From Pseudomonas sp. KU43P (GTDB lineage: Bacteria > Pseudomonadota > Gammaproteobacteria > Pseudomonadales > Pseudomonadaceae), in assembly GCF_033095865.1 (NCBI RefSeq), contig NZ_AP019365.1, positions 2,081,501 through 2,145,500 on the forward strand: DNA of 64,000 bases. The letters run 5' to 3'. Positions 37,421 through 58,497 of the stretch are shown in pieces. The position numbers were made by a program, and so were the translations under genes. The stretch's first letter is position 1. Each line of letters starts with the position of its first letter. The notes beneath the pieces are model-generated. The model was not told the origin of the DNA. It ran no database searches and worked only from the letters and a program-made list of their open reading frames with translations.

Positions 37421-39244
<1,824 letters not shown>

Positions 39245-39277
39245 AATGCCGGGCTCAACCCGCAGCCAGTCGTACCG

Positions 39278-39838
39278 ATGAATATTCCAAACCTGCTCAC
39301 CGTTCTACGCGTCCTGCTCATCCCGATCTTCATCCTGCTGTTCTATGTGCCCTATCACTGGAGCTACATGGCCGCCAGCACGGTGTTCGCCATCGCTGCC
39401 GCCACCGACTGGTTGGACGGCTACCTGGCGCGCCGCCTGCAGCAGAGCACGCCATTCGGCGCCTTCCTCGACCCGGTGGCCGACAAGCTGATGGTAGCCG
39501 TGGCCCTGGTCTTGCTGGTGCAGGTGCACGCCAACTTCTGGCTGACCCTGCCGGCTGCGGTGATCATTGGCCGCGAGATCGTGGTATCGGCCCTGCGCGA
39601 GTGGATGGCTGAGCTGGGAGCCCGGGCGCATGTGGCCGTGTCCAACCTGGGCAAGTGGAAGACCGCCGCACAGATGCTGGCGCTGGTGATCCTGCTGGCC
39701 AACCCACCGATCGTGAGCTTCTGGGTGGTGCTGGGTTATGGCCTGTTGCTGGTGGCTGCAGCGCTGACCCTGTGGTCGATGGTGCATTACCTGGTAGCCG
39801 CCTGGCCGCACCTGCGCGAAGGTTCGGAGCAGAAATAA
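39278..39838 (+). CDS. pgsA: CDP-diacylglycerol-glycerol-3-phosphate 3-phosphatidyltransferase
   Basis: 186 residues, integral membrane CDP-alcohol phosphatidyltransferase. The active-site motif DGxxAR...GxxxDxxxD is present as [19 protein letters not shown] followed by AFLDPVADK. Makes phosphatidylglycerophosphate. Follows uvrC by 33 bases. Confidence 0.96.
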
Positions 39839-39901: not shown

Positions 39902-39977
<76 letters not shown>

Positions 39978-40011
39978 AATTTGATCCTCAGTGCGTCGCT
40001 GGGATCACAAA

Positions 40012-40038
40012 GAAGAGGCCTTAGGGCCTCTTTTTTTG
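40012..40038 (+). terminator. Rho-independent terminator after tRNA-Gly
   Basis: AGAGGCC and GGCCTCT arms around a short TTAG loop, followed by seven T, 35 bases after the tRNA. Confidence 0.85.
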
Positions 40039-40296
40039 TGCCTGGGATTTGGCAATCAGCTTGCTTGGCTTCGTAGCCCTTCAGCAAGCCGCCATTTACA
40101 GTGTTTGCGCGAGGGGCCACCTCGCCTCGACAGAATGCATGACCTCATGCAGCAATGGTTGGGCACAGCTGATGTCAGTCTGAGAGAAAGCGGGCATAGC
40201 AATTTTTTGAAAAATGCCCAACTTCCTTAGCCTGCATAATTAAGTTTGATGACTATCATCAACATGCAATATAGATAGGTGCATTACTGGCCTGCT

Positions 40297-40476
40297 CTAG
40301 CGAAACTCTTCCTCTATAACGTAAAACTCTGTTTTTTTTGCTCCGCAATCTGGGCATAACCAGTCTTCTGGCAGGTCAGCAAAAGCTGAAGAAGCGAATT
40401 CCTCTTGACCAATACGCTCAAAAGTCTCGTCGTAGCAATACCAGCATTTTCGACAAAAATACTTTGCTTCAGCCAT
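40297..40476 (-). CDS. Rubredoxin (short gene)
   Basis: 59 residues, MAEAKYFCRKCWYCYDETFE ... LPEDWLCPDCGAKKTEF. Two iron-binding pairs, Cys8/Cys11 and Cys41/Cys44, and the LPEDWxCPDCGxxK block identify a one-iron rubredoxin, an electron carrier. GAGGAG lies about 8 bases before the ATG, and the start overlaps the end of the LysR gene by 8 bases, so it belongs to the operon. A third cysteine (Cys14) is unusual. I infer that it may feed electrons to the di-iron oxidase encoded upstream. Confidence 0.87.
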   Translation of the reverse strand: MAEAKYFCRKCWYCYDETFERIGQEEFASSAFADLPEDWLCPDCGAKKTEFYVIEEEFR

Positions 40477-41455
40477 TTCGATACTCCTCTTTACTGCCAG
40501 CCCCAGCTACTATTTTGGTCTGCCATTCGTTACTAAGCACTATGAGTTCACCCAAAAGAAACTCAACTATAATTTTTACTTTTTTGGGGACAAACCGTCC
40601 AGGTTGATAAACAACCCAGGCAGCTCCCTGAGATGCCCCTTTAAAGATCCACCCTGGCAGTAAACGACATAATCTTCTACTCTCTATTGCTTCAGCCGCC
40701 ATGCAAATTGGCATACAAGAGATACCTAGTCCGGATAGCGTAGCAGTGAGCGTTGCCTCGGGACACTCTGACAAATACCGACCAGCGACTGATACATCAC
40801 ACTCTTCGTTACCCGATATAAATTTCCAGCACTGCCTGTCAGGGTTTCCTATGAAAGGAATACAGCTGTGTCCAATAAGCTCAGACGGATGATTAGGCGC
40901 ATCATGCAGCTTCAAGTAACCATCCGTAGCACACACTACAAAATCTACATCAAAGAGCTTTCTAGCCACCATCCCCAGTGGTGGTCTATCAGTGATGACA
41001 ATGCCAACATCTATAGCATCCGCAATGAAGTCAAACTTCTCACCGCATATTAGGTGAACGTTAACACCACTGTGTGCAACTAAAAATCTCGGCATCAGCT
41101 TGCTGCATAAAGCATACAGGGACTTCGGTACGGCCAGCCTTATCAAACCTTGAGGAGACTCCAAGAACCGTTCTTTTACCTTGAACATATTTGCAGATGA
41201 ATCGAGCACTGATTTGCAGTGTGCGTAAATCTCCTCACCTTCTGCATTGATTTTCAAGTGTCGAGTGCTGCGTTCAAGCAGTCTCAAAGAAAGTGCACTC
41301 TCAAGCTTCGTTACTTGCTTGCTAATGGCTGAGGCAGTTACTCCTAATTTAACTGAGGCCTCAACAAAGCTGCCGGTTTCAACAACTACGGCGAAGGCAG
41401 CCATGCACGGTAATATATCAATATGACTCTTTGGAAGGTAGCCTTTAGGTTCCAT
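40469..41455 (-). CDS. LysR-family transcriptional regulator of the halogenase operon
   Basis: 328 residues, with an N-terminal winged HTH (about 16-75: FAVVVETGSFVEASVKLGVT, SAISKQVTKLE) and a substrate-binding-like effector domain from about 105. Resembles the CrgA/DmlR-type LysR subgroup. Same strand as and downstream of the biosynthetic genes, unusual for LysR proteins, which are mostly divergent. Probably controls this operon in response to a product or precursor. AT-rich codon use like its neighbours. Confidence 0.85.
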   Translation of the reverse strand: MEPKGYLPKSHIDILPCMAAFAVVVETGSFVEASVKLGVTASAISKQVTKLESALSLRLLERSTRHLKINAEGEEIYAHCKSVLDSSANMFKVKERFLESPQGLIRLAVPKSLYALCSKLMPRFLVAHSGVNVHLICGEKFDFIADAIDVGIVITDRPPLGMVARKLFDVDFVVCATDGYLKLHDAPNHPSELIGHSCIPFIGNPDRQCWKFISGNEECDVSVAGRYLSECPEATLTATLSGLGISCMPICMAAEAIESRRLCRLLPGWIFKGASQGAAWVVYQPGRFVPKKVKIIVEFLLGELIVLSNEWQTKIVAGAGSKEEYRNG

Positions 41456-41521
41456 TTATCGACCACTCATATTTTTTATTAAAAACATACATCAAGTCAA
41501 GGGCGTGAAGCTCCTGAGGAA

Positions 41522-42388
41522 TCAGGCAACAATGTGAAGCATTACTGCGCCACACAAAACTAATGTGATTCCAAGCAGTTGAATTAGAGATAAGCGCTCT
41601 TTTATGAAGATAAAACCTAGAACAGCAGCCACACCTCCAGATAGCGTGCTGATAATGGTGACAATCGCGATAGATCCATGGATAGCTCCATACGAAAACG
41701 CTGTGAATCCTCCTAAGTTAAAAAGACCGGCCCCACCTAAGGAAATGTATGATCTTACACCCAGAGAATTTTTCGCATGCTGCTTAAGCATGAATGGAAA
41801 AAGGAAAATAACTCCCACTAGATAAGTTGTCCAAAGCATGTTAACTGGCCCTATCGCCGGAAGCGTATATTCTCCCTGAATCCAAAAACTCAATCCATAT
41901 AATATGGCAGCTACAAGAGCAAAGGAAATGGCTTTGCTCTCGCCGAAGCAAACCGGACGGCTTTTGGATTTATGGCCTGCTCCGACAAGTATTACGCCCA
42001 ATACACATCCTGCAAGACCCAGAAATTGAAGTGTTGACAATAACTCTCCGCTCATCCATGCAAGTAATGCGGTAACAACTCCATACAAGGTGATCAAAGG
42101 AGCAACAATTGCGGTTTTTCCGTATTTAAAGGCTTTGGTCAGCGCGATAGCTCCTGTTAACGTTAATAATGAGGCGGCTAAACTAATTAGCATTACAGCT
42201 AAGCTAGCTATCCGAATAAATTCAAAACCCTCTTGGGACATCCAAACGAAGGCACTCAAGAGCACTAAGCCTAGAAACTGCCCTAGAAAGACAGACCTGC
42301 TCACACCAAAACGCCTTGCGTTTACGCTTACTAAATAGTCAGTAATACCCCAAAATACCGCTGCTACCAGCCCCATCGTTACGTCCAT
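41522..42388 (-). CDS. EamA/DMT-family transporter
   Basis: 288 residues with ten predicted helices in two EamA repeats (first from MGLVAAVFWGITDYLVSVNA, second from SFALVAAILYGLSFWIQ). Drug/metabolite transporters of this type often export amino acids or small metabolites. In this operon it is the best candidate exporter of the product. Confidence 0.82.
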   Translation of the reverse strand: MDVTMGLVAAVFWGITDYLVSVNARRFGVSRSVFLGQFLGLVLLSAFVWMSQEGFEFIRIASLAVMLISLAASLLTLTGAIALTKAFKYGKTAIVAPLITLYGVVTALLAWMSGELLSTLQFLGLAGCVLGVILVGAGHKSKSRPVCFGESKAISFALVAAILYGLSFWIQGEYTLPAIGPVNMLWTTYLVGVIFLFPFMLKQHAKNSLGVRSYISLGGAGLFNLGGFTAFSYGAIHGSIAIVTIISTLSGGVAAVLGFIFIKERLSLIQLLGITLVLCGAVMLHIVA

Positions 42389-42440
42389 TCTTATTTTCCT
42401 TCCCTACAGTAGTTTCAAGAACGAGACGACAGCCACTCGT

Positions 42441-43652
42441 CTAGAGGCGATCAAAAGACAACTTTCGTTCGAAGAATCTATTTGAGATGGAAATAAAAGG
42501 CGCTGTCAATATTGTGGAGAAGAACGTCACGAGCATTAGAACATTATAGGAATTTTCCGACAGTAGCCCTGCCTGATATCCTACAGCGATAACAATCAGT
42601 TCAGCTGCACCTTTTGTACTCATCAGAATACCAAGCTCAATTGATGCGCGCTGGCCTAAGCCTATGATCCGGCCAGCAAAGTAAGAGCTCAAAGCCTTGC
42701 TGATAACTGCCCCACTTAGGAAGATCAGCACCCACAACCAAACTTTCAATTCCGCAAGCCCGTTAAGTGAGAATTGAAGGCCAACATTAACAAAAAATAG
42801 GGAGATCAGAAGTTGACCAATACCACCTATCCATCTATCCCAAACATTTTTTGCACCCTCCATCTCAACGGCTACACAAGCAGCCAAAACTATGCCTATT
42901 GAAAAATGGAAGCCAAGGATATCTGTCGTCACTGCCGAAACAATAAAGAATACAAATAAACCTACGCCACTCGATTTGCTAGTAGGCTTGGCTTTTAGTT
43001 TGCGCAAGAAGGGCTTGATTAATAACAGCATGGTTGCAGTGTACGCGGCAAGCAGCATCACATTAGCAAGATTACCTACCTCATCATGCCGAACCACAAT
43101 CAATAGAAAAGCTAATGCCAGCCAAGCAAATATATCCGTGTATACAGCTGCTGTAACAGCTAGTCGTCCACATCTGGCTTGAAGCCCATTCGATTCTTTC
43201 ACTATTGCCATAAGAACGGGGAGGGCTGTCACCGAAAAAGCAATCCCGCAGAAGACTATATATCCTGCTAAATTGGAAATAGGACCAATATCAAATCTTG
43301 AGTAAAATGCCAGAACCCCTCCAGCAATAAACGACACTGCTATTCCTGCGCCTGAGAACAACATGATGTATGTCTCGCTGATCTCAAGTTTATTTTTTAA
43401 GCTTATTTCCCACGCGGCCTCAACCAGTATAAAAACTAAGCCAAATTCACCAAGCATTTTTAACAGCGTTAGCGCGTTAGCGGGGATGACGCTCCAAAAG
43501 AAAGGATAATAGAAACCAAGAACCGTCCCTCCTAATACAACGCCGGCGCATACATCTCCTAAAACCGTAGGCTGACCAAGTTTGCCCAGTACTGTTCTAC
43601 ATGCGACGCAGGCAATTAGTATCATCAGCGCCAATGCAATAAACTCTTTCAT
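42441..43652 (-). CDS. CPA2-type sodium/proton (Kef-like) antiporter
   Basis: 403 residues with about 12-13 membrane helices. The CPA2 features are GDVCAGVVLGGTVLGFYYP near the N terminus and GIAFSVTALPVLMAIVKE in the middle helix. No C-terminal RCK/TrkA-N domain, so it is the membrane part only. Its presence in a small-molecule operon is unusual; it could balance ions or pH or export a charged product. Confidence 0.8.
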   Translation of the reverse strand: MKEFIALALMILIACVACRTVLGKLGQPTVLGDVCAGVVLGGTVLGFYYPFFWSVIPANALTLLKMLGEFGLVFILVEAAWEISLKNKLEISETYIMLFSGAGIAVSFIAGGVLAFYSRFDIGPISNLAGYIVFCGIAFSVTALPVLMAIVKESNGLQARCGRLAVTAAVYTDIFAWLALAFLLIVVRHDEVGNLANVMLLAAYTATMLLLIKPFLRKLKAKPTSKSSGVGLFVFFIVSAVTTDILGFHFSIGIVLAACVAVEMEGAKNVWDRWIGGIGQLLISLFFVNVGLQFSLNGLAELKVWLWVLIFLSGAVISKALSSYFAGRIIGLGQRASIELGILMSTKGAAELIVIAVGYQAGLLSENSYNVLMLVTFFSTILTAPFISISNRFFERKLSFDRL

Positions 43653-43690
43653 TGCAGCACCTTAATTTTTGCAGGGATGAACGCTTGAGG

Positions 43691-44923
43691 CTACATGTTC
43701 AAGCGAAGAAGCTGATGCACTAACTCGGCGTGCTCCGCTAATAGTTCTCGGTTCTCGTGTACTAGATAAACCATGCCCCATGAAGAAAGGAAGTCTCGTG
43801 TCACCTCTACACGCTGCCCTGTCGATACAAATAGGTTCATAGAATTGAAAGAGCTTAGTTGGCTAACAAGCTCCACTCCTGAAATGCTCTTAACCTCACC
43901 CGGTGCTGTGCTAATCAGACAGCATATGCAGAAGTGTTTATTAAATCTTGGTGTTGCAGTATGTTGAAATTTTTTGCCCAAGTAGATATCGAGATTAAAG
44001 TCGTAGCAATTGAAGCCAGAACAGAGCTCAATCATTCTCGGTACATCGGCACCTGGTAAACGACCATTCTGCTCGATAATCAAGACACCTTTCGGGCCTA
44101 TTTTTAATTCTATATCGTTGATTCCATAATCTAATTCAATCGCTTCATTTACATCGCAAGCATAAGAAAAAGCAAGTTGAGCATTGTCTCCCGATAGCGG
44201 TAGCGACATGATATTCTTGTAAATGCTTAGGTTGCCCGAGCATTCAATCTTCTCGTATTTCGCAAAACATAAAAATATCTTATTTTCGTTCTTTCCAAGA
44301 TTGGCTGTTACAACAAAATACTCTATGCCCTCAATATACTCTTCAGCTAGCGCAACTACTTCTCCATCTACATGAAAATCATGATTGCCCTCTATGTTAG
44401 ATATGGCAAGGCTCAGCTCAGCGAGATTCTTACATACTTTCACATTTTTGCTGCCGGTTCCTTGGCTAGGTTTAACTACGAGAGGAAAATTAAAGTTCTG
44501 ATCTTGACTGCGCTCAATAGATTTCAGGCTAACCTCAATCGAATGAGTCGCAGGAACGTTCTTGTATTCAAGTGTTTTCTTTAACTCTAGTTTGCACATT
44601 CGCGATTTTAGGCTGATTACTGGGTTTCCCACCAATCCATAATGATAATTCAACATGTCTGAAAGCCCCAATCCGAGGTCAGAACCCGGAATTACCGCGC
44701 ATATTTCGTATTCTGCTAGGCGGCATACAGCTAGTTCAAAACTTCCTGCATATACCACTACTTCGAACCCACTCAGATCCTGCAGACGGCGAAGCCCCTC
44801 CGATAGTTTGGCAACACTTATGAGTGCAACACCAATTAGACCTTTGCTTCGAATCTCACTACCGTAGTGGCGAGCAGAGCTGACAGGATCAACTATGACG
44901 ATCGCAGATCGACGCCCATTCAT
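43691..44923 (-). CDS. ATP-grasp amino-acid ligase (BesA-like role)
   Basis: 410 residues, ATP-grasp fold of the L-amino-acid ligase/carboxylate-amine ligase group. The nucleotide-binding lysine and glycine loop are in VVKPSQGTGSKNV (Lys151), and the Mg/ATP residues are Glu272 (INDIELKI) and Glu284, Asn286, Arg288 in IIEQNGRLPGADVPR. It joins a carboxylate to an amine through an acyl-phosphate. In the bes pathway the analogous BesA makes a gamma-glutamyl dipeptide; whether this ligase uses glutamate is not readable. Its start overlaps the preceding stop by 4 bases (ATGA). Confidence 0.83.
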   Translation of the reverse strand: MNGRRSAIVIVDPVSSARHYGSEIRSKGLIGVALISVAKLSEGLRRLQDLSGFEVVVYAGSFELAVCRLAEYEICAVIPGSDLGLGLSDMLNYHYGLVGNPVISLKSRMCKLELKKTLEYKNVPATHSIEVSLKSIERSQDQNFNFPLVVKPSQGTGSKNVKVCKNLAELSLAISNIEGNHDFHVDGEVVALAEEYIEGIEYFVVTANLGKNENKIFLCFAKYEKIECSGNLSIYKNIMSLPLSGDNAQLAFSYACDVNEAIELDYGINDIELKIGPKGVLIIEQNGRLPGADVPRMIELCSGFNCYDFNLDIYLGKKFQHTATPRFNKHFCICCLISTAPGEVKSISGVELVSQLSSFNSMNLFVSTGQRVEVTRDFLSSWGMVYLVHENRELLAEHAELVHQLLRLNM

Positions 44924-45795
44924 TGAATACTCCTCATCATCTGATACATATGCTCGTAATATCTAATTGCAACGTTATATCGAATGGCAACTCCCAGAGA
45001 TAACTCTCGCAAAACATCTGGACCGCAATCTGCATAGTGCGGCAAGACTCGCTCCAACCAAGCACAGCTATGCCGTGTATCGATTTTGATATGCGTTTTG
45101 TGATAAGCAATAACCTCTGTTGGCAACTTTAAGCGTTCGAGCGCTTCAGTGGTTGCACGAAATCGGACTGGTGCAGATCCCTCTACAAGTCCCATTGCGC
45201 CAATCAACCTCACGTTATATTCTCTTCTTATCGCCCACATAAGCAGAACATTGCCGTTCATAAGGCATTCCAGTGTGGGGTATTTTACAGATATTCCAGC
45301 TCCGTCCAGCACCTTGCGCATATGTGCTGATGACTGCTTGAACATTGAGGTATGAACGGCAGTGAAATCGCCATTTCCCATTTCATCCCAGTAGTTTTCT
45401 CCAGCCACCATTTTTTGTTTTACTGGCATCCCTATTTGGACCATTGCCATTAAATCATCAAATGAACCATCAACGAGCTCTTCCATGCAGATGTAGTATG
45501 CCATCTGCTCAACGGTCGCTTCTTGCCTAACATACTCAATGAACAGTTGAATATCGATATTAAGCTTGTTTTCTTTTGCGATATACCAACTGACAAACTC
45601 TTCTTTATTAGTGGGTAGTTCATCTGTATTTACGTTATGCTCCTCGAACGTAAGCCAGTTGTCTTCCAGGCGATGGATTTCATTTTTTATATTTTGAAGC
45701 ACCCCCCTCATGGCAACCAGGCTCTCTGGTGATCCAAGTACTTTTCTATAATAACTTGCAAGCTTCTCTTGCTCTTCATAAATCAAGGAATTCAT
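44920..45795 (-). CDS. Haem-oxygenase-like di-iron oxidase (BesC-like)
   Basis: 291 residues from the ATG at 45795, which has AGAGG 8 bases upstream (an upstream ATG at 45834 lies in the DUF3291 gene). All-helical. Six of seven expected iron ligands can be placed with the spacing I recall for SznF: Glu138, His148, Glu205, His235, Asp239, His242 (the THIKIDTRH stretch gives H-x3-D-x2-H); the first is probably Glu105 or Glu106. Family members cleave or N-oxygenate amino acids with O2. Beside a halogenase and ligase it best fits BesC, which splits 4-chlorolysine to 4-chloroallylglycine. Confidence 0.83.
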   Translation of the reverse strand: MNSLIYEEQEKLASYYRKVLGSPESLVAMRGVLQNIKNEIHRLEDNWLTFEEHNVNTDELPTNKEEFVSWYIAKENKLNIDIQLFIEYVRQEATVEQMAYYICMEELVDGSFDDLMAMVQIGMPVKQKMVAGENYWDEMGNGDFTAVHTSMFKQSSAHMRKVLDGAGISVKYPTLECLMNGNVLLMWAIRREYNVRLIGAMGLVEGSAPVRFRATTEALERLKLPTEVIAYHKTHIKIDTRHSCAWLERVLPHYADCGPDVLRELSLGVAIRYNVAIRYYEHMYQMMRSIQ

Positions 45796-45806
45796 ATCGA
45801 CGCCTC

Positions 45807-46253
45807 TCAATACAACGCTGTTGGGAAATCGCAAGATTTGAGATTAAATGCCTGGTATGAAGGGCCATTTTCATACAGCCATATCAAGCGCCTATGTGCC
45901 TCTTCGAGAGTTGGGATATGCCCCGAATCGACCCACCATAAAACAATCCGTGGATGCTCAATTGGCTGAAACCAGTTGTGTCTACTGAGGATCATTTCGG
46001 CATGTGGGGTTTTATAAAGAAAGTTTTTCAGCGACCACACATCTTTCCACAGCGAGAGCGTATAGAGATAGCCTTCGCCCCATAACGTATCTAACTTGTC
46101 TTGATCTTCATTTACTTCGCGCCATATGAATCCGCGTGAGCTTTCCGCTAACTTGTTTATGTAATCAACGTTGTTGTAAAATTCATCCATTTTACGATCA
46201 TCGCGTGGGAATTTAGGCTTTACCAGGTCAAACTGCGCCAATATTTTAGTCAT
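45807..46253 (-). CDS. DUF3291 family protein
   Basis: 148 residues. The whole length matches the DUF3291 pattern: AQFDLVKP start, SRGFIWREV, LSLWKDVWSLKNFLYKTPHA, a WWVDSGHIPTLEEAHRR block and AFNLKSCDFP end. The fold should be a dimeric alpha/beta barrel as in antibiotic-biosynthesis monooxygenases; the enzymatic role is unknown. Overlaps the VOC gene end by 4 bases, so it is firmly part of the operon. Confidence 0.85.
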   Translation of the reverse strand: MTKILAQFDLVKPKFPRDDRKMDEFYNNVDYINKLAESSRGFIWREVNEDQDKLDTLWGEGYLYTLSLWKDVWSLKNFLYKTPHAEMILSRHNWFQPIEHPRIVLWWVDSGHIPTLEEAHRRLIWLYENGPSYQAFNLKSCDFPTALY

Positions 46254-46708
46254 AGGTACTCCCAGCTTTGAATTTCGATAATGTTTCTCTCTGGGTCCCG
46301 AACATATAAAAAATTGCAGGTGCCCACTTCTTCCACGAAAACTTCAGAGAGCCTACCTAGCAGCGCACCGCCCCAGCGGATTACATCCACACATACGCTT
46401 TCTAGATTTTTTACTTCAAAAGCCAAATGGGTTAGACCTTGTGTGTTGGCCTGTTTTTCTGCCGCTTGAATGCTCTTTTTATATTGAAAGATTTCCAGCG
46501 TTGGGCCACAACTCCCATAACCCGGTAGCCGTAAATGAATGCCCTCGATCTCTGGTGAGCACACTCCGGTCCCCGCTGCAATTGAATCTCCAGAGAGTTT
46601 TCTCGGCGAACCGACTGGGACACACCCAAAGACACAAATATAGAAATTTGATAAATTGCGCCAGTCGCACGATATTAAGTTTGCGTGCGCGTATTTAATA
46701 TTGTTCAT
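46250..46708 (-). CDS. VOC (glyoxalase-fold) metalloenzyme
   Basis: 152 residues from the ATG at 46706-46708 (AGGG upstream; a TTG at 46741 inside the halogenase gene is less likely). Two beta-alpha-beta3 modules with four metal-ligand positions His8, Glu72, His94 and Glu145 (IKYAHANL, LEIFQY, LTHLAFEV, NIIEIQSW), the classic VOC 2-His-2-Glu set. VOC enzymes catalyse isomerisation, epimerisation, ring-cleaving dioxygenation or antibiotic inactivation. Here it could be a tailoring or self-protection enzyme; the sequence does not decide. Confidence 0.83.
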   Translation of the reverse strand: MNNIKYAHANLISCDWRNLSNFYICVFGCVPVGSPRKLSGDSIAAGTGVCSPEIEGIHLRLPGYGSCGPTLEIFQYKKSIQAAEKQANTQGLTHLAFEVKNLESVCVDVIRWGGALLGRLSEVFVEEVGTCNFLYVRDPERNIIEIQSWEYL

Positions 46709-46724
46709 AGGGTAGCCCTGATAC

Positions 46725-47471
46725 TTAGTCCCGAAAAACAAAGGTCTCGTGTTCTACGAAGCGATCCTTGTCTCTAGCTCGCTCCCATGTGGTGTTTAGA
46801 ATAATTCGATTAACGTCATGGGTTAGTGGCTTGACACGATGTAATGTCGTATCGGCTTTCAGTAAATATATATCTCCAGAAGAATGGAAGTATGAGTCAA
46901 TTTTGTTTTCCACCAAAAGTTCTTCCACTCGCGGGTTTTTCTTATTCCACCTGGTGTGTGGGACACACTCCAATAGCCCCCCGCAGTCAATAGCGGGGGC
47001 TTCTACTACCCAGATAATTGTGTAAGGGTAGTCCCCCCAGTGCCATCCATGTGTATCCCCTGACTTATGCTGACAGTTAATAATGTAGTTGTCCCATTTC
47101 CATGGTGTGGGGATTACGTCCTCTTTAACAATGTTTGCTATCAGGCTGGACAGGTACTTTGACTCATAAGCCAAGGAAATAAATTTTCCATTTTGCTCAA
47201 TGGATTCCTGAGGCACATTACTTAAACGCCTAGGAGTATTGCCGGTTGACTCAATGACAAAATCTCGACGTTTCGAGTGGTTCGCTAGGAGAAACCTTAC
47301 ATCCTCGGCAATTAAAGCATTTACTGCCGGATCAACAAGATCATTGATCTTCAGGTAGCCATTTCTTTCAAAGCGGTGTTGCTCCCAAAAGAAATCTCTT
47401 TCTGAAAACGGATCAGAGTTCAGTAATTCAGAAAGCTGTGAGGATATATGTTCCAGGGTATTCTCAGGCAT
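46725..47471 (-). CDS. BesD-type radical amino-acid halogenase (Fe(II)/2-oxoglutarate)
   Basis: 248 residues. Iron-site region THGWHWGDYPY: His144 is followed by Gly146 where hydroxylases have Asp, leaving a halide site; the second His is His211 in DTTLHRVKP, 67 residues later, the same spacing as His137/His204 of BesD as recalled. Further BesD substrate-pocket positions keep Arg81, His141, Asp147, Asn226 and Thr228; the BesD Glu120 is Asp127 here and Trp239 is Phe246. It probably chlorinates a free basic amino acid such as lysine or ornithine. First gene of the operon. Confidence 0.85.
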   Translation of the reverse strand: MPENTLEHISSQLSELLNSDPFSERDFFWEQHRFERNGYLKINDLVDPAVNALIAEDVRFLLANHSKRRDFVIESTGNTPRRLSNVPQESIEQNGKFISLAYESKYLSSLIANIVKEDVIPTPWKWDNYIINCQHKSGDTHGWHWGDYPYTIIWVVEAPAIDCGGLLECVPHTRWNKKNPRVEELLVENKIDSYFHSSGDIYLLKADTTLHRVKPLTHDVNRIILNTTWERARDKDRFVEHETFVFRD

Positions 47472-48357: not shown

Positions 48358-48426
48358 TGAACTGGCCTAATGATTTTGGACACCTTCTTAGGGCGCTATG
48401 ATGGCGCCCAATTGGAGGCAAAATCA

Positions 48427-48729
48427 GTGCGAAAGTCATACTCGAAAGAACAGAAAGTCCGGGCTGCCGAGATGGTGCTGGACGGTGGCCAGTCAGTCCC
48501 CGAAGTCTGCGAAATGCTTGAGATTGGGCCTACAGCCCTGCGGCGTTGGGTCGAACAGGTGCGCAAGGAGCGGGAGGGCCAGGTGCCAGCTGGAGCCAAG
48601 GCCATTACCCCGGATCAACATCGAATCCAAGAGCTTGAGGCACTGGTTCGGCAGAAAGATCGAGATATCGAAATCCTAAAAAAGGCCAGTGCTCTCCTGC
48701 TTCGGGACTCCAAAGATCGTTCTCGCTGA
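48427..48729 (+). CDS. IS3-family OrfA
   Basis: 100 residues from a GTG at 48427 preceded by GGAGG. HTH region SVPEVCEMLEIGPTALRRWV and a C-terminal leucine-zipper-like coil (RIQELEALVRQKDRDIEILK). An upstream ATG at 48370 lies inside the inverted repeat and is less likely. Confidence 0.9.
   Translation: MRKSYSKEQKVRAAEMVLDGGQSVPEVCEMLEIGPTALRRWVEQVRKEREGQVPAGAKAITPDQHRIQELEALVRQKDRDIEILKKASALLLRDSKDRSR
48678..48684 (+). promoter_or_regulatory. Programmed -1 frameshift site
   Basis: A-AAA-AAG heptamer in the orfA frame (codons CTA-AAA-AAG); slipping by -1 joins orfA to the orfB frame to give the OrfAB transposase. Confidence 0.85.
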
Positions 48730-49571
48730 TCAACGAACTGAGTGAGCAATATGGTGTTGTCGAATGCTGTCGCGTGCTTGGGGTCAAGCGCAGCAGTTTC
48801 TATGCGTGGCGCCAGCGCCAAGCCCGAAAAAATCCTGAACGGGATCAGTTACGCTCGGCTGTGGAAGGCCACTTCAAAGCCTCTCGCGATTCGGCCGGGT
48901 CGCGGACGCTAACCCAGGAGTTACGACGCGACGGCCATAAGATTGGGCGTTACAAAGTACGTGCGCTGATGCGTGAAGCTAACCTTAAGTGCAGGCAGCG
49001 TAGGCCGCACCGGTACCGCTCATCAGGCGTGGAAGCATTGATTGCTGAGAATCAGCTGAAGCGAAATTTCAAAGTTTCGACGATCAACGAGGTTTGGTGT
49101 GGAGACGTGACGTACATCCAGGTTGGCAAGCGCTGGCTGTACTTGGCCGCTGTGATCGACCTTTATGCGCGCCGTGTAGTCGGCTGGGCATTTTCGATGA
49201 TTGCGGACGCCAGGCTGGCCTGTAACGCACTGCACATGGCGGCCGAGTCCCGTGGCAAACCGACAGGCGTGATGTTTCATTCCGACCAGGGATGTCAGTA
49301 CACCAGCCACAAATTCAGGGCTGCACTTGAAGAGTACAGCCTGAACCAGAGCATGAGTCATCGCGGACAGTGCTGGGACAACGCCGCCATGGAGCGTTTC
49401 TTCGGGGCCCTGAAATCAGAGTGGATCCCTGCTAAGGGCTATGAAACCGAAGAGCAAGCTCGGGCGGACATCCAGGCTTACTTGGTGCGCTACAACCTGA
49501 AGCGCCTCCACAGCTACAACGGTTACGAAACCCCGGTAGCCATGGAGAAAAAGCTGAAGGCAGCGGCATAA
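48729..49571 (+). CDS. IS3-family OrfB transposase (DDE)
   Basis: Open from the frameshift region; the first internal ATG is at 48774. HTH_21 region (LNYERDQLRSAVEGHF-like RDQLRSAVEGHFKASRDSAG) and the rve integrase core with Asp in VWCGDVTYIQ, Asp in MFHSDQGCQYTS and Glu in DNAAMERFFGALKSE. Normally expressed as an OrfAB fusion. Appears complete. Confidence 0.92.
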   Translation: MNELSEQYGVVECCRVLGVKRSSFYAWRQRQARKNPERDQLRSAVEGHFKASRDSAGSRTLTQELRRDGHKIGRYKVRALMREANLKCRQRRPHRYRSSGVEALIAENQLKRNFKVSTINEVWCGDVTYIQVGKRWLYLAAVIDLYARRVVGWAFSMIADARLACNALHMAAESRGKPTGVMFHSDQGCQYTSHKFRAALEEYSLNQSMSHRGQCWDNAAMERFFGALKSEWIPAKGYETEEQARADIQAYLVRYNLKRLHSYNGYETPVAMEKKLKAAA

Positions 49572-49608
49572 AACCTAAACCGGTGTCCAAAATTAGTTGA
49601 CCAGTTCA

Positions 49609-49824
49609 TAGGGGCTCCTCAGAACCCAGGCGTTAGGTGCAAAACTCGAATCTGGACCATCCCAGTGATGCCAAACTATTTCAGCAGTGTATTCACCAGT
49701 TGCGCCTGCGCCGTCTCATCTAGGTTGGAACAGACTGCACATCTGCTGGAGTGGAGCTAAGGGCAAGCCGTCGGGTCGCGAATGATCATTGCACAGACGT
49801 AGTAAAAGAAGCTGTACCGTTCGC
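49609..49824. other. Short non-coding stretch right of the IS element
   Basis: About 215 bases with no gene; it marks the return from the accessory block to GC-rich sequence. No repeat of the tRNA-Gly 3' end (potential att site) is visible here. Confidence 0.5.
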
Positions 49825-49867
49825 GTGTGAACACAAAGCCCCGGTTCACGGGGCTTTGTGTTCACAC
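49825..49867. terminator. Long bidirectional terminator hairpin
   Basis: A 19-bp perfect stem (GTGTGAACACAAAGCCCCG and its complement) around a 5-base loop, 22 bases after the DUF1329 stop. AAAGCCCCG...CGGGGCTTT gives a T-rich end on both strands. Confidence 0.85.
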
Positions 49868-49888
49868 GGGGGGGGCGGGGCTTCGCAC

Positions 49889-51271
49889 TCAACGAGTACC
49901 CAATTTGCGCAAGTTCCCGGGCGTGAACTCTTCAGGCCCGAAGTTGCTGGCATTGAGCAGTGCCGGTTTCTGATGATCGAGCAGCCGGTCGACCATGTAG
50001 GCGCCGGCAATCAGGTCATGGTAGATGGCCAGGCGCGCGTGGAAGCGCTGGATGTCGTAGGCATAGATCGAGGTCTGCATGTTGGTGCGCCACAGTTGGC
50101 CGCGGCCATCGTAGTTGTCGGCCAGGGTGGCGGCCCAGCTGTCTTCGTCGATGTAGAAGGTGCGCTTGGCATAGATGTGGCGTGCGCTGGGCTTGAGCGT
50201 GGCCTGCAGAATCCAGGTGCGGTGCTTCTCGTAACGCATCAGGTCCGGGTTGATGTGGCCGGCGGCGTTGATGATGTCCGACTGTTTGACGTCCGGTTCA
50301 TCGATTTTGTAGTTGTTGTAGGGGATGTAGATTTCTTTCTTGCCGACGATGGTCCAGTCATAGCGGTCGGTCGCACCGTTGAACAAGCGGTCTTCGTCAT
50401 ACACACGGAAGCCACCGGCGCCGGTTGGCGAGTCGTAGCCCACGGTCGGCGCCCGGCGCACGCGACGCTGGCCGGGGGTGTACTGCCAGGCCTGGCGGGG
50501 TTGCGCGGCTGAGTCGGTGAATTCGTGGCCGACAATGATCTCGCCTTTCTTGCGCACCGGCTCCAGCGTGGTGAGCAGGAAGTTGGTGAAGATGCCGTTG
50601 GTGGTCTGGGCGTTCTGCTTGGGGTCGGACCACAGTGAGTAGATCTTGTAGTTGACCTTTTCCAGCACCCGGTTGTTGTCGGCATAGACGACCACCTGGT
50701 TGTAGTTGGCTTCCTCGGTGACTGCCCGTGCTTGCATGTTGTGGTTGAGGATCAGCTCGTTGCCGTTCTTCGGGATCGGGAACGGCGAGGCGCCGAAGGC
50801 TTCCAGTGCATCATTGCCGTCGGCGCTGAGCTTGGCGCTCTGGGCGTTGCGCAAGATTGCCGCTTCGGTGTCCTTGTCGGCACGGAAATCCCGGTGGCTG
50901 GGGTAGACCGGCATCTTGAAGGTGGCGGGGTAGCGCTTGAACAGCGCCTTCTGGCCCTCGGAAAGGTTTTCGGCGTACTGGTCCATGTTCTGCGCGGTGA
51001 TGACGAACAACGGCTTTTCGTTGGCGTAGGGGTCCGGGTAGGGGCTGCCGGGGCCGTCGAATTTCACCTGTGGCGGGGCGCCGCGCCACTTGCCGGTCCA
51101 CTCCGGGATGCTGCCATCGGCGTTGCCGGCGCGCTCGGCGCCGATCGGGGTCAGGGCCTTGCCCAATTGCGCGGCATCGCTGCCATTGGCGCTGGCCTGC
51201 AGGGCCACGCTGCTGCTCAGCAGGGTGGCGGTAAGCGTGGCGCGCAGCCAGGTGTGCTTGAAGTCATGCAT
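49889..51271 (-). CDS. DUF1329 outer-membrane-associated protein
   Basis: About 460 residues from the ATG at 51271 (GAGG upstream; an ATG at 51286 is an alternative). Signal peptide (TATLLSSSVALQASA) then a LolB/LolA-like beta-domain protein of family DUF1329 (KALTPIGAERAGNADGSIPE; PSARHIYAKRTFYIDEDSWA). Such proteins pair with DUF1302 proteins in clusters for hydrophobic, often steroid-like, substrates and are thought to help move lipids or sterols in the envelope. Downstream of the DUF1302 gene by 23 bases. Confidence 0.88.
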   Translation of the reverse strand: MHDFKHTWLRATLTATLLSSSVALQASANGSDAAQLGKALTPIGAERAGNADGSIPEWTGKWRGAPPQVKFDGPGSPYPDPYANEKPLFVITAQNMDQYAENLSEGQKALFKRYPATFKMPVYPSHRDFRADKDTEAAILRNAQSAKLSADGNDALEAFGASPFPIPKNGNELILNHNMQARAVTEEANYNQVVVYADNNRVLEKVNYKIYSLWSDPKQNAQTTNGIFTNFLLTTLEPVRKKGEIIVGHEFTDSAAQPRQAWQYTPGQRRVRRAPTVGYDSPTGAGGFRVYDEDRLFNGATDRYDWTIVGKKEIYIPYNNYKIDEPDVKQSDIINAAGHINPDLMRYEKHRTWILQATLKPSARHIYAKRTFYIDEDSWAATLADNYDGRGQLWRTNMQTSIYAYDIQRFHARLAIYHDLIAGAYMVDRLLDHQKPALLNASNFGPEEFTPGNLRKLGTR

Positions 51272-51294
51272 GTCGTTGATCCTCATTCAGGGCT

Positions 51295-52872
51295 TCAGAA
51301 CCGGTATTTGAAGTTGAGTGCGACGTTGTCGCGGTCGGCCCAGGGCGAGTTGTTGGCGTTGCCCAGGAAGGCGCTGTAGAGCGCTTCGACGGTGAAGTTG
51401 CCGAGGTAGCGCCAGGTCGTGCCGATGCTGGCGCGATCGTCGCCCTGGCCATAGTTGATCGAGCCGGTGAGGGCGCTGTCGTGCTGGGCGGCGGTGCTGA
51501 AGTTGATCGGCACCGACATGTCCCAGCCGCTGAAGACGTCGTTGTAGTCGAAGTTGACCTGCACCGTGTAACCCCAGGCATCGCGGTCGCCCACCAGGCT
51601 GTCGGTGCCGCCCAGGGTCAGGCCCGGGGCCAGGGTCAGCGGGTCGGATTTGTCGTTGTGCAGCACGGTGTTGTAGACCAGCTCCCCGGTCAGGGTGGTG
51701 TTGTCGGAGAAGGCATTCGGCCCGAACACGTGGATGGCCGAGAGCTGTGCCTGCAAGGTCTCGGCGCGCACCGCGCTGGAGAAGCCGTTGTCGACCATCA
51801 CCGGCTGGCCGTCCCGGTAGCTGACTTCGCCGGCCAGGCTGGTATCGCCGAGCACGGTGGCGAAGCTGGCGCCATACAGGTCGATGTTGTCGAAGTAGCG
51901 GGCACGGTAGAAGCCCAGGTCGCTCTGGAAGTCCAGGGTCGGGGTCTTGTCGTGGTAGCGCACGTAGTACAGGCCGAATTCGGTGTTGTTCAGCGAGGCG
52001 GCGCTGTAGCGCAAGGCCACGCCGTACTGGCCGCTGTCGCTGGGCTCGTCGTCCTTCAGGCGCCTGACGAAGCCGGTGGCGTCGCTGTAGCCGCCCCGGT
52101 CGATGTAGTCGGTGGTGGAGAAGTAGCTGCCGACCCCGAACATCTGAGTCTTCTCCCACTTGTACTGGTAGTAGGCTTCCACATCCAGGTCGTCGGTCAG
52201 GCTGAACTGGCCGAACACCTGGCCGACCGGCAGCAGCACTTCCTTCACTTCGACGCCCGGGGTGGTCGCCTTGGTCGCGTCCACCGGGCTTTGTGCGCCC
52301 GAGACACCCGGATAGAACAGGCTTTCACCCCAGCTCACCACCTGGTCGCCCACGCGCAGGTTGAGGTTGTGCCCGGCCATGTCCCAGGTGCCGTAGGCAT
52401 AGGCATCGAGCATGCGCAGGTCATCGCGGTGCTGGTCGACGGTGTCCTTGGGGAAACGGTTCGGTTTGCTGCACACGCCACTGGCAAAGCAGTTGGAGGT
52501 GCCGGTGTCGTTGTCGTTGCTCTGATCGTAGGCCCGGTCGTAGAAGCCCGAGGCCCGCATGAACACGCCGTAGTTGTCCTGCCAGCGCAGGTTGGCCTCG
52601 GTGAGGAAGCCCACGCGGTCGGTGATCAGGCTGCCCCGGTCGAATGCATTGTCGCCGTCGTTGCCATCGGCATTGGCCACCAGCTTGTGGTCGCGTTTCT
52701 CGGTACGCCAGGCAAGGCTGTAGCTCAACGTGGTGTCCCAGTCGATGCTGAGGTCATCGTTGGGCTGGAAGGTCAGGGCGCTGGCCGGCTGGCTGAGGCT
52801 CCCGGCCAGCAGCAGCAGGGGCAGGCTTACGTACGTGTTGAGCGGTGGCTGGGCGATTGTTGTTCTTATCAT
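51295..52872 (-). CDS. DUF1302 outer-membrane beta-barrel protein
   Basis: 525 residues with signal peptide (LLLLAGSLSQPASA) and a large beta-barrel (DTTLSYSLAWRTEKRDHKL; CTGTC-like SNCFASGVC; C-terminal NVALNFKYRF). DUF1302 proteins are channels or receptors for hydrophobic substrates. Forms an operon with DUF1329 and diverges from the FAD gene at 53102 over a gap with two copies of a shared palindrome. Confidence 0.87.
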   Translation of the reverse strand: MIRTTIAQPPLNTYVSLPLLLLAGSLSQPASALTFQPNDDLSIDWDTTLSYSLAWRTEKRDHKLVANADGNDGDNAFDRGSLITDRVGFLTEANLRWQDNYGVFMRASGFYDRAYDQSNDNDTGTSNCFASGVCSKPNRFPKDTVDQHRDDLRMLDAYAYGTWDMAGHNLNLRVGDQVVSWGESLFYPGVSGAQSPVDATKATTPGVEVKEVLLPVGQVFGQFSLTDDLDVEAYYQYKWEKTQMFGVGSYFSTTDYIDRGGYSDATGFVRRLKDDEPSDSGQYGVALRYSAASLNNTEFGLYYVRYHDKTPTLDFQSDLGFYRARYFDNIDLYGASFATVLGDTSLAGEVSYRDGQPVMVDNGFSSAVRAETLQAQLSAIHVFGPNAFSDNTTLTGELVYNTVLHNDKSDPLTLAPGLTLGGTDSLVGDRDAWGYTVQVNFDYNDVFSGWDMSVPINFSTAAQHDSALTGSINYGQGDDRASIGTTWRYLGNFTVEALYSAFLGNANNSPWADRDNVALNFKYRF

Positions 52873-52960
52873 TGTCGTCCTCGTGCGCGGGCATGCCTGC
52901 CCGTCCGACGTTTTGGGTAGGTGGTGCAGGCACGACTATGGGATGGGGCCTTGGCAGCAA

Positions 52961-52979
52961 CATCGTCCAAGTGGACTAC
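52961..52979. promoter_or_regulatory. Operator-like palindrome, copy 1
   Basis: CATCGTCCAAGTGGACTAC in the divergent gap between DUF1302 and the FAD gene; the half-sites GTCC and GGAC face each other. Near copies occur at 53000, 57381, 61506 and in diverged form at 61540 and 62867. Confidence 0.65.
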
Positions 52980-52999
52980 GCGCGCGGTGCATCGACGCG

Positions 53000-53018
53000 G
53001 TAGTCCCATCGGACGATG
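53000..53018. promoter_or_regulatory. Operator-like palindrome, copy 2
   Basis: GTAGTCCCATCGGACGATG, the reverse complement of copy 1 with few changes, centred 39 bases away, so the two form a large inverted arrangement. Confidence 0.65.
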
Positions 53019-53101
53019 CCGGGGCGCTTCGTGCGTTGGACAATCCCTGGCCGATGGCCCCGCGCGGGCCGTGCTGCGGTCTGCCCGACGGAGGTACGCG
53101 G

Positions 53102-53911
53102 ATGATCAGGTGGGATGAATGCTGCGACGTGCTGGTGGTCGGGGCGGGCGCTGGCGGCATGACCGCCGCGCTGCGTGCCCATGACCTGGGCCTCGATACC
53201 CTGCTGATCGAGAAGCGCGATCAGTACGGCGGTACCTCGGTGGCTTCTGGCGGTAGTGTGCGGATCCCCGACCTGGGCCGCGCCATGCTCGAGTACCTTG
53301 AGCGCGACACGCGCGTACGCTTCGTCGCCATGGAGCCCAAACCCTTCGAAGGCGCAGCCCTGGGCGAGGAATTGCTGCGCATGCGCGAGCCATCGCCCGG
53401 CACGCTGCTGATGGGGCGCGTGGCCATGACCCTGACCGAAACGCAGGTGCTTGTTCACCGCAGCAAGGGCTGGCTGGGCCTGGCGGCAACCGTGCTGTGG
53501 CGCTACTGGCGTGACCGTGAGGGCCGCAGGTTGTCGCGGCGCGACCGTTATCTCACCCAGGGCAGCGCCCTGGTCGGCGCCTTGCGTTGCTCGCTGCTCG
53601 ACCGCGGCCTGCCGCTGTGGCTGAACTGCCCGCTCGACCAACTGCTGATGGTCGGCCATCGCCTCGGCGGTGCCCGCGTGCGGCGCGACGGGCAATGGCT
53701 GAACATCAAGGCCCGCCATGGGGTGATCATCGCCTCGGGAAGTGGCGAGCGTAGCCTGGCGATGCGCCCCGGCACCCAGGGCCTGTACGCCATCGGCCCG
53801 GGTACCGGTCTCGGGCCCGCCATGGCCTTCGGCTTCCTGGCCGCCAACCAGATTCGCGGCAAAAGCCAGCAACGCCAGGGTGAGTTCACCCTGGCCCTGA
53901 CCGGGAGATAG
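53102..53911 (+). CDS. Internally shortened FAD-dependent oxidoreductase (KstD/fumarate reductase type)
   Basis: 269 residues with an intact N-terminal dinucleotide fold (DVLVVGAGAGGMTAALRAHD), the SVASGGSVRIPD substrate-loop start and the C-terminal GLYAIGPGTGLGPAMAFGFL FAD segment. Full-length relatives are about 550 residues; blocks are missing after SGGSVRIPD, after the VRFVAMEPK segment and before GLYAIG. The frame is open, so these are in-frame losses. Probably a non-functional or remodelled dehydrogenase. GGAGG ribosome site; 4 bases before the SDR gene. Confidence 0.7.
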   Translation: MIRWDECCDVLVVGAGAGGMTAALRAHDLGLDTLLIEKRDQYGGTSVASGGSVRIPDLGRAMLEYLERDTRVRFVAMEPKPFEGAALGEELLRMREPSPGTLLMGRVAMTLTETQVLVHRSKGWLGLAATVLWRYWRDREGRRLSRRDRYLTQGSALVGALRCSLLDRGLPLWLNCPLDQLLMVGHRLGGARVRRDGQWLNIKARHGVIIASGSGERSLAMRPGTQGLYAIGPGTGLGPAMAFGFLAANQIRGKSQQRQGEFTLALTGR

Positions 53912-53915
53912 AAGC

Positions 53916-54794: not shown

Positions 54795-54807
54795 GGCTGC
54801 TGTGCAG

Positions 54808-54897
54808 CCCATCGCCGGCAAGCCGGCTCCTACAGGTATCGCGCAGTTCCTGAAAGCGGCGCTGTACTTGTGGGAGCCGGCTTGCCGGCGATGGGTC
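54808..54897. repeat. REP pair (inverted)
   Basis: Facing REP cores (left one has CTCCTACAGG) separated by about 45 bases between the convergent SDR and acyl-CoA synthetase genes. Confidence 0.9.
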
Positions 54898-54911
54898 GCG
54901 TAGCGGCCCCC

Positions 54912-56495: not shown

Positions 56496-56563
56496 GGGGC
56501 CTCCTCAGGCAGAGGATCGATAAGCCAAGGGGATGGCCGGGCCCGTGGGCCCGGCCGGATGGG

Positions 56564-57310: not shown

Positions 57311-57380
57311 ATTCAAACCCTCTGTCTTATTGTTGTGGAGCGTTTCCGCTGGCGAGTCTACCTGTTGCCGAGCCTGTCGG

Positions 57381-57399
57381 GATCGTCCGCAAGGACTAG
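57381..57399. promoter_or_regulatory. Operator-like palindrome, copy 3
   Basis: GATCGTCCGCAAGGACTAG, about 70 bases upstream of the SDR start at 57310. Same half-sites as copies 1 and 4. Confidence 0.65.
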
Positions 57400-57404
57400 T
57401 GGCA

Positions 57405-58496: not shown

Positions 58497-58497
58497 G

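What the first reader, a model, noticed from the sequence alone, without database searches (positions are those of the whole stretch)
40297..47471. Candidate new chlorinated amino-acid biosynthetic operon related to the bes pathway
One minus-strand operon, with 4-base overlaps at two junctions, combines a BesD-like halogenase, a BesC-like di-iron oxidase and an ATP-grasp amino-acid ligase, i.e. three of the steps known for beta-ethynylserine. It lacks BesB (PLP, alkyne forming) and BesE (2OG hydroxylase). It adds VOC, DUF3291, rubredoxin, EamA exporter, CPA2 antiporter and LysR genes. Known: BesD makes 4-chlorolysine, BesC converts it to 4-chloroallylglycine, BesA ligates glutamate. Inference: the product stays chlorinated and olefinic, or is altered by the VOC/DUF3291 pair, and may be released as a dipeptide. 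I do not know of a described cluster with this exact set.
Basis: partly seen in the sequence, partly recalled or inferred. Interest (0 to 1): 0.95.

Follow-up and report, generated by a model that had tools for sequence, protein, structure and literature searches.

The report
New Pseudomonas chlorinated amino-acid gene cluster
A horizontally acquired eight-gene cassette found in several Pseudomonas species pairs an enzyme that probably chlorinates a free amino acid with an iron oxidase related to nitro-group-forming enzymes, not to the enzyme of the known alkyne pathway it was first compared with, so its product is probably of a different, still unknown kind.

Summary
Halogenase, VOC, DUF3291, HDO, ATP-grasp, CPA2, EamA and LysR recur in 12 distinct Pseudomonas loci, in the same order in 11; a rubredoxin was found beside 5 of 12. 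The cassette is 43.8% GC against 64-66% in the chromosomal flanks.

The halogenase is a BesD-family enzyme with the halogenase HxG site. The oxidase is not BesC-like: it finds no BesC in the PDB at E<=10, though BesC (7twa) is held and a true BesC relative finds it at 1e-63. Its best solved relative is HrmI (7e-33), which turns the lysine side-chain amine into a nitro group. The ATP-grasp enzyme is not BesA-like. So this is not a truncated bes pathway.

I propose that a lysine-type amino acid is chlorinated and N-oxygenated, and that the metal-binding VOC enzyme then expels chloride, giving a nitrocyclopropane (Cl at C4) or nitroalkene (Cl at C5), which is ligated and exported. Cluster and families are shown; N-oxygenation and VOC role are inference. 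It is a new variant of a known kind, possibly already in an unnamed list of HDO/ATP-grasp clusters.

The parts
46725..47471 (-). BesD/HalD-family Fe(II)/2OG amino-acid halogenase, 248 aa; HxG metal site (THGWHWGD), clade-specific Glu->Asp at the BesD E123 position, HalB/HalD-like lid (HET)
   Evidence: PF23169 E 3.4e-84; PDB HalB 2e-69, HalD 2.1e-59, BesD 2e-57; residue table
46250..46708 (-). VOC-superfamily protein, 152 aa from the likely start (longest ORF to 46741); the four metal-ligand positions (H7, E71, H93, E144 of the 151-residue stretch aligned; ligand pattern recalled) invariant; proposed chloride-expelling step
45807..46253 (-). DUF3291 protein, 148 aa, ABM-type alpha+beta-barrel fold predicted for residues 1-112; HDO-associated accessory protein
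44920..45795 (-). Haem-oxygenase-like di-iron oxidase (HDO), 291 aa from the likely start (longest ORF to 45834), HrmI side of the superfamily; predicted 3His/3carboxylate ligands E118, E151, H161, H248, D252, H255 (304-aa ORF numbering); proposed side-chain N-oxygenase
   Evidence: PDB HrmI 9n1a 7e-33, no BesC at E<=10 (control); tree; ligand alignment
43691..44923 (-). ATP-grasp L-amino-acid ligase, 410 aa; proposed dipeptide former
   Evidence: PF13535, PF18603 LAL_C2; PDB L-amino acid ligase 30vh 3.6e-12; NF005543 and dapdiamide synthase DdaF matched below cut-off
42441..43652 (-). CPA2-type Na+/H+ antiporter-like membrane protein, 403 aa (KefB/C-related, only the antiporter domain matched)
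   Evidence: PF00999 3.4e-40; TIGR00932 4.2e-25, below cut-off
41522..42388 (-). EamA-family transporter, 288 aa; proposed exporter
   Evidence: PF00892 1.2e-25
40469..41455 (-). LysR-family regulator, 328 aa
   Evidence: PF00126 and PF03466; present in 12 of 12 loci
40297..40476 (-). Rubredoxin, 59 aa; optional, possible electron donor to the HDO
   Evidence: PF00301 2.6e-11; found adjacent in 5 of 12 loci

Best explanation
A horizontally transferred Pseudomonas cassette makes and exports a small peptide of a modified basic amino acid. (1) The BesD-family halogenase chlorinates a free lysine-like amino acid (about 0.85), at C4, or at C5 as its HalB-like lid suggests. (2) The HDO, related to HrmI/BelK and not to BesC, oxidises the side-chain nitrogen towards nitro (about 0.5), perhaps helped by DUF3291 and, where present, reduced by rubredoxin. 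(3) The VOC metalloenzyme binds the resulting nitronate through its two oxygens and expels chloride: ring closure to a nitrocyclopropyl amino acid if Cl is at C4, elimination to a nitroalkene if at C5 (about 0.3). (4) The ATP-grasp enzyme ligates the product to another amino acid (about 0.65), EamA/CPA2 export it or protect the cell, and LysR regulates. Shown: gene set, families, conservation, active-site residues, HDO placement relative to BesC. Inferred: every reaction, their order and the product.
For: Eight core genes in 12 of 12 distinct loci, same order in 11. Halogenase metal site HxG in 12 of 12. HDO best solved match HrmI 7e-33, with BesC absent at E<=10 although held and found by a true relative. 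D126, D127, R204, R224, H245, R285 invariant (gaps apart) in 12 cassette HDOs and 4 HrmI/BelK-like rows, and F, R, E, M, W, F in BesC; ligand D252 is Glu in BesC. A review states that HrmI/BelK take lysine N6 to nitro, and that charged substrate residues of HrmI are hydrophobic in BesC (passages of PMC13108848). VOC ligand positions invariant in 37 of 37 aligned proteins. Sister clusters L107 and L108 pair a related HDO and DUF3291 with a PF10014 2OG enzyme, the Pfam family of the 2OG gene in the belK/belL/belM-like triad of L070, where the window has halogenase plus VOC.
Against: The window HDO is not inside the HrmI/BelK-like clade (4 rows, 98%) but in a separate 51-row group (99%) that holds no enzyme I know to be characterised, and the tree warns of long branches; 31-34% identity does not fix a reaction. 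The charged residues are largely shared by other rows of that wider group, so they mark the superclade, not the reaction. VOC relatives are many (852 proteins at E<=0.001); the one annotated VOC context that I opened (Sporomusa, L127) shows no halogenase annotated nearby. The Glu->Asp change at the ammonium-contacting E123 in 12 of 12 cassettes leaves the substrate uncertain. L107 also holds desaturase, GNAT, ThiF and semialdehyde dehydrogenase genes, so the 'replaced slot' reading is loose.
Confidence: 0.4

Rival explanations
1. Chlorine is retained: the halogenase makes a chloro-lysine or chloro-ornithine that the HDO N-hydroxylates or nitrates, and the ligase builds a stable chlorinated dipeptide; the VOC is a resistance or binding protein.
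For: Some VOC proteins bind or inactivate antibiotics; FosX, a mitomycin-binding protein and TnmS1 are among the fold matches. No dedicated C-Cl-consuming enzyme is proven.
Against: The four metal-ligand positions are invariant in 37 of 37 aligned VOCs. The VOC gene lies second, among the biosynthetic genes, in 12 of 12 loci. The bes pathway eliminates the installed chlorine (PMC8407142 passage), as does paz (recalled).
Confidence: 0.25
2. The HDO does another oxidation (desaturation, C-N ring closure, multi-step rearrangement) on the chloro-amino acid or on a peptide, so the product has no N-O bond.
For: HDOs with a 3H/3C ligand set include AetD, UndA, HrmI, PolF and MboA, with very different reactions (PMC13108848 passages and section 4). 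MboA acts on a peptide made by ATP-grasp ligases and has a redox partner (PMC13185094 abstract and passages). The window HDO lies outside the HrmI/BelK-like clade.
Against: The only PDB sequence that it matches at E<=0.001 is HrmI; the next HDO-like entry, 9pfw, is at E 0.019.
Confidence: 0.25
3. One reading: a bes-like pathway in which the HDO fragments 4-chlorolysine to 4-chloroallylglycine, which is then ligated.
For: Halogenase 41% identical to BesD; an HDO and an ATP-grasp gene are present.
Against: HDO vs BesC E 0.85, 20.7% over 140 residues; not found against 7twa at E<=10, while L046's HDO finds it at 1e-63; different clade; no BesA match, and BesA has other domains (PGM1_C).
Confidence: 0.04

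Closest known systems
bes pathway (beta-ethynylserine), Streptantibioticus cattleyicolor; locus read here as L065 (record not annotated there; BesC ORF identical to 7twa, BesD to 6nie; BesA, BesB, BesE named from recall and Pfam)
   Same: BesD-family amino-acid halogenase; an HDO, an ATP-grasp ligase and an EamA transporter in one cluster
   Different: HDO is of the HrmI side, not BesC; ATP-grasp not BesA-like; no BesB or BesE; adds VOC, DUF3291, CPA2 and rubredoxin
Belactosin/hormaomycin lysine module BelK-BelL-BelM / HrmI-HrmJ-HrmT (nitrocyclopropylalanine)
   Same: HDO related to HrmI (34% over 226 aa) with the same predicted ligand set; belactosin also uses ATP-grasp ligases (PMC10764440 passage)
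   Different: No PF10014 enzyme and no epimerase gene in the cassette; halogenase and VOC instead; HDO outside the HrmI/BelK-like clade
paz pathway of Pseudomonas (Sosa et al. 2024; title seen in the reference list of PMC13185094, content recalled): C4-chlorolysine, then a PLP enzyme closes a cyclopropane
   Same: BesD-family halogenase in Pseudomonas; chlorine as leaving group is the analogy used here
   Different: No PLP enzyme in the cassette; the loci here that look like paz are L048-L054, of which only L050's neighbours were examined (SHMT-like gene after the halogenase)
HalD-type clusters (L045-L047; HalD as an ornithine halogenase is recalled)
   Same: Halogenase and CPA2 antiporter adjacent in 3 of 3; L046 also has an HDO and EamA
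   Different: L046's HDO is a true BesC relative (46%); no VOC, DUF3291 or ATP-grasp match by tblastn in the three
Mangotoxin mbo cluster (PMC13185094)
   Same: HDO, ATP-grasp ligases and a dedicated redox partner
   Different: No halogenase is named for it in what I read; MboA acts on a peptide

Membership tests
BesD-family amino-acid halogenase | Over Pfam HalD (PF23169) cut-off | tested here: met
   282 bits vs 26
BesD-family amino-acid halogenase | Metal site His-x-Gly...His (Gly instead of the hydroxylase Asp) | tested here: met
   H140, G142, H207 equivalents conserved in 12 of 12 cassette rows; the PDB hydroxylase row has Asp
BesD-family amino-acid halogenase | Chlorination of a free amino acid | not testable with these tools
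   needs assay
L-lysine 4-chlorinase BesD (NF042920 equivalog) | Score over the equivalog cut-off | tested here: not met
   234.1 bits vs 450
L-lysine 4-chlorinase BesD (NF042920 equivalog) | Substrate residues R77, E123, H137, D143, D239, W241 (roles from a PMC13244439 passage) | tested here: not met
   R77, H137, D143 kept; E123->D, D239->T, W241->V in the window
BesC (4-chloroallylglycine synthase) | Sequence membership with BesC | tested here: not met
   no PDB match to 7twa at E<=10, positive control 1.1e-63, separate clade
bes pathway | BesA-, BesB- and BesE-like genes | tested here: not met
   no significant blastp match of the nine proteins to the BesA, BesB or BesE ORFs of L065 (best E 0.24)
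HrmI/BelK lysine N-oxygenase | 3H/3C ligand set with Asp | tested here: met
   E118, E151, H161, H248, D252, H255 by alignment to HrmI and BesC; structure of the window HDO not predicted, ligand positions assigned by me from the alignment
HrmI/BelK lysine N-oxygenase | Inside the HrmI/BelK-like clade | tested here: not met
   HrmI, L070, L069, P0117 form their own 98% clade without the window
HrmI/BelK lysine N-oxygenase | Neighbouring PF10014 2OG cyclopropanase | tested here: not met
   none in the cassette; present in L070, L107, L108
HrmI/BelK lysine N-oxygenase | Oxidation of a side-chain amine to nitro | not testable with these tools
   needs assay
VOC metalloenzyme | Fold and four metal-ligand positions | tested here: met
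   ligand pattern recalled, metal not shown
CmaC-type chloride-displacing cyclopropane former (recalled) | Ring closure with loss of chloride | not tested
   CmaC sequence deliberately not fetched; no assay
DUF3291 / ABM-type alpha+beta barrel | Pfam match and fold | tested here: met

The most novel reading that the evidence does not exclude
Chlorination, side-chain N-oxygenation and a vicinal-oxygen-chelate enzyme together form a new route: chloride is expelled by a metal-chelated nitronate, giving a nitrocyclopropyl or nitroalkenyl amino acid. This would be a second, chlorine-based way to the kind of ring that HrmJ/BelL make by direct C-H activation, and a new reaction for the VOC superfamily on a free amino acid.
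Probability: 0.25. Interest if true: 0.85.

Novelty: new variant of a known kind. Interest (0 to 1): 0.6.

Why it matters
It links two enzyme families that make unusual amino acids (free amino-acid halogenases and HDOs) in a combination that I did not find described in ten library searches (listed under Tried and rejected). It gives a compact eight-gene system, with 12 natural versions, for asking how chlorine and nitrogen oxidation are combined. It also corrects an easy misreading: an HDO beside a BesD-family halogenase is not necessarily BesC. One carrier is the named strain Pseudomonas capeferrum WCS358, so deletion tests are possible.

Tried and rejected
BesC assignment: rejected. Ten literature searches of the open library listed no paper on this gene set that I recognised from titles and abstract starts; one search found 0 papers, one, PMC13185094. 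That paper reports at least 25 unique HDO/ATP-grasp clusters (section 7) in a supplementary figure that I could not see, so the cassette may be listed there. Neugebauer 2019 and Sosa 2024 are not held; a DOI that I recalled for Kissman 2023 is not held either. Their content here is recalled, except that HalB is called an L-lysine 5-chlorinase in a passage of PMC10187165 and that the BesD family is summarised in a passage of PMC8407142. The search for 'pazamine' listed 10 of 15 papers, most of them on tirapazamine. Papers, what I saw: PMC10764440, PMC8407142, PMC10187165, PMC13244439 passages; PMC13108848 passages and section 4; PMC13185094 abstract, passages, sections 5 and 7; all others search listings only.

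A residue search in PMC13244439 with the numbering that I recalled found nothing; the paper's own numbering came. VOC and DUF3291 contexts on plasmids gave little, except L126. The fold search gave only a superfamily for DUF3291. Repeats of the tRNA-Gly sequence of 14 bases or more inside the window: none, so no attachment site was found. Promoter-like (9, shuffles 14.8) and terminator-like (6, shuffles 7.6) sites were not above expectation. Additional flanking genes: no ORF family shared by more than 5 of the 12 loci. HDO relatives outside the genus: 6 of 369 genomes of the class at E<=1e-10, own genome included, the other five at 25-34% identity; contexts of three were fetched and only compared with the window proteins. 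An earlier count said 'same order' for all loci; the swap in L044/L063 was seen later.
Full report
WHAT IS THERE. The window lies in a single-contig genome of 5.87 Mb, a Pseudomonas judging by the named relatives. Minus-strand ORFs at 40297-47471 encode, in order of transcription, a BesD/HalD-family halogenase, a VOC-type protein, a DUF3291 protein, a haem-oxygenase-like di-iron oxidase (HDO), an ATP-grasp ligase, a CPA2-type antiporter, an EamA transporter, a LysR regulator and a rubredoxin. Junctions are tight: 4-base overlaps at VOC/DUF3291 and HDO/ATP-grasp, gaps of 38, 52 and 66 bases further on. The cassette has 43.8% GC against 64.1% (37421-39838) and 65.9% (49600-60000) in the flanks, and lies between a tRNA-Gly (39902-39977) and a transposase gene pair (48370-49571): most likely a horizontally acquired island.

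CONSERVATION. PF23169 matches at E<=0.001 in 89 of 398 sampled genomes of the genus, own included; in 66 of these 89 the best match is under 75 bits. Of the 23 genomes with stronger matches I left out the window's own and two with a broken or partial copy, and took regions around the other 20. The one genome-contig scan gave 7 loci (7 of 43 pattern-matching stretches encode a relative). By tblastn with the nine window proteins, all eight core genes are present in 7 of the 20 regions and 7 of the 7 scanned loci. In the genus sample the cassette is in 8 of 398 genomes, own included. Identities to the window are 61-80% for the halogenase and 22-44% for CPA2. Rubredoxin was found adjacent in 5 of 12 (window, L039, L040, L042, L058). 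For four of the other seven (G167, G182, G207, G330) a family search of the genome placed rubredoxins elsewhere; for three (L059, L061, L062) only tblastn was used. In P. capeferrum WCS358 (L058) the cassette lies beside the same uvrC-pgsA-tRNA-Gly but in the opposite orientation.

HALOGENASE. The best solved relatives are HalB (2e-69), HalD (2.1e-59) and BesD (2e-57). The Gly that makes a halogenase (HWG; the hydroxylase row has HWD) is present in 12 of 12 cassettes. A simulation paper assigns BesD residues: ammonium to D239, D143, E123; carboxylate to R77, H137, W241 (passage of PMC13244439). In the cassettes R77, H137 and D143 are kept in 12 of 12, and E123 is Asp in 12 of 12. The 15 other rows of BesD, HalB, HalD, lysine-halogenase, lysine-hydroxylase, L045-L047 and L048-L054 all have Glu; three divergent rows, L055-L057, have Gly. 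D239 is Thr in 12 of 12, as in HalB; W241 is Val (11) or Ile (1). The lid therefore resembles HalB, named an L-lysine 5-chlorinase (PMC10187165 passage), more than BesD. The score is far below the BesD equivalog cut-off (234 vs 450 bits). So a free basic amino acid is the likely substrate, and the site is open between C4 and C5.

HDO. The window HDO finds HrmI (9n1a) at 7e-33 and no BesC at E<=10, whereas the HDO beside a HalD-type halogenase in L046 finds BesC (7twa) at 1.1e-63. Against BesC read from the S. cattleyicolor plasmid (L065; identical to 7twa) the window HDO scores E 0.85. A tree of 59 rows (the window, 8 references, 10 cassette loci, 40 of the 120 listed homologues; one cassette, L040, and the three duplicate loci were left out, and one fused homologue was cut to its last 310 residues) separates BesC and L046 from all others (100% SH-aLRT). 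The cassette HDOs fall in a 20-row set (96%) within a 51-row group (99%); HrmI and three BelK-like proteins form their own 98% clade outside it; long branches are flagged and it is a quick search. Twelve cassette HDOs and four HrmI/BelK-like rows share 34 positions (gaps not counted) that are not invariant in the BesC pair, among them D126, D127, R204, R224, H245, R285 and ligand D252. A 2026 review says that HrmI/BelK oxidise the lysine side-chain amine to nitro, HrmI by way of N6-hydroxylysine, and that charged substrate residues of HrmI are hydrophobic in BesC (PMC13108848 passages); whether the residues above are those is not stated in what I read. N-oxygenation is thus the nearest precedent, not a proof.

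VOC. The four ligand positions are invariant in 37 of 37 aligned proteins: the window and 36 chosen from the 120 listed of 852. The model matches glyoxalase-family structures. Nitronates present two oxygens to a metal; that a VOC enzyme could use this to expel chloride is my inference.

MODEL AND RIVALS. The favoured model and its rivals are in their sections. Cluster and families are shown; the halogenase reaction is likely; N-oxygenation is about even; the VOC step and product are speculative. Pazamine (recalled) is precedent for chlorine as a leaving group in Pseudomonas lysine chemistry. CPA2 and halogenase genes are also adjacent in three non-cassette loci (L045-L047).

NOVELTY. Enzyme families are known; the combination did not come up in ten searches, listed under Tried and rejected. 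PMC13185094 reports at least 25 HDO/ATP-grasp clusters without naming them in the text I read, so priority is uncertain.

Noticed in passing
window 39902-40300 and L058 7903-10001: The same uvrC-pgsA-tRNA-Gly site carries the cassette in opposite orientation in the window and in P. capeferrum WCS358 (UvrC 96% identical), as if acquired or inverted independently at one hot spot.
   Followed up: partly
L045, L046, L047: CPA2 antiporter next to a HalD-type halogenase in all three; L046 also has a true BesC relative (46%) and EamA. A possible ornithine-based bes-like cluster; L045 and L047 were not examined for the HDO.
   Followed up: partly
L048-L054 (L050 9163-11929): BesD-like halogenase loci with, in L050, an SHMT-like PLP gene and a LysE exporter; looks like the paz pathway (recalled). 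Only L050's neighbours were run through Pfam.
   Followed up: partly
L107 6677-13780 and L108 8026-14986: HDO cluster without halogenase: DUF3291, semialdehyde dehydrogenase, ThiF, GNAT, PF10014 2OG enzyme, HDO, desaturase, LysR (all families run for L107; two genes for L108). Not searched for in the literature.
   Followed up: partly
L070 8758-13470: Streptomyces plasmid with a belK/belL/belM-like HDO-2OG-dapF triad followed by a molybdopterin-dependent oxidoreductase.
   Followed up: partly
L055, L056, L057: A divergent halogenase-family group with Gly instead of Glu at the BesD E123 position and no clear lid match; substrate presumably different.
   Followed up: no
L001 1168-2541 (own genome): A second, larger PF14518 protein in the same genome (open frame 477 aa), followed by an ORF that looks like a methyltransferase by eye; its relation to the cassette HDO was not tested.
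   Followed up: no
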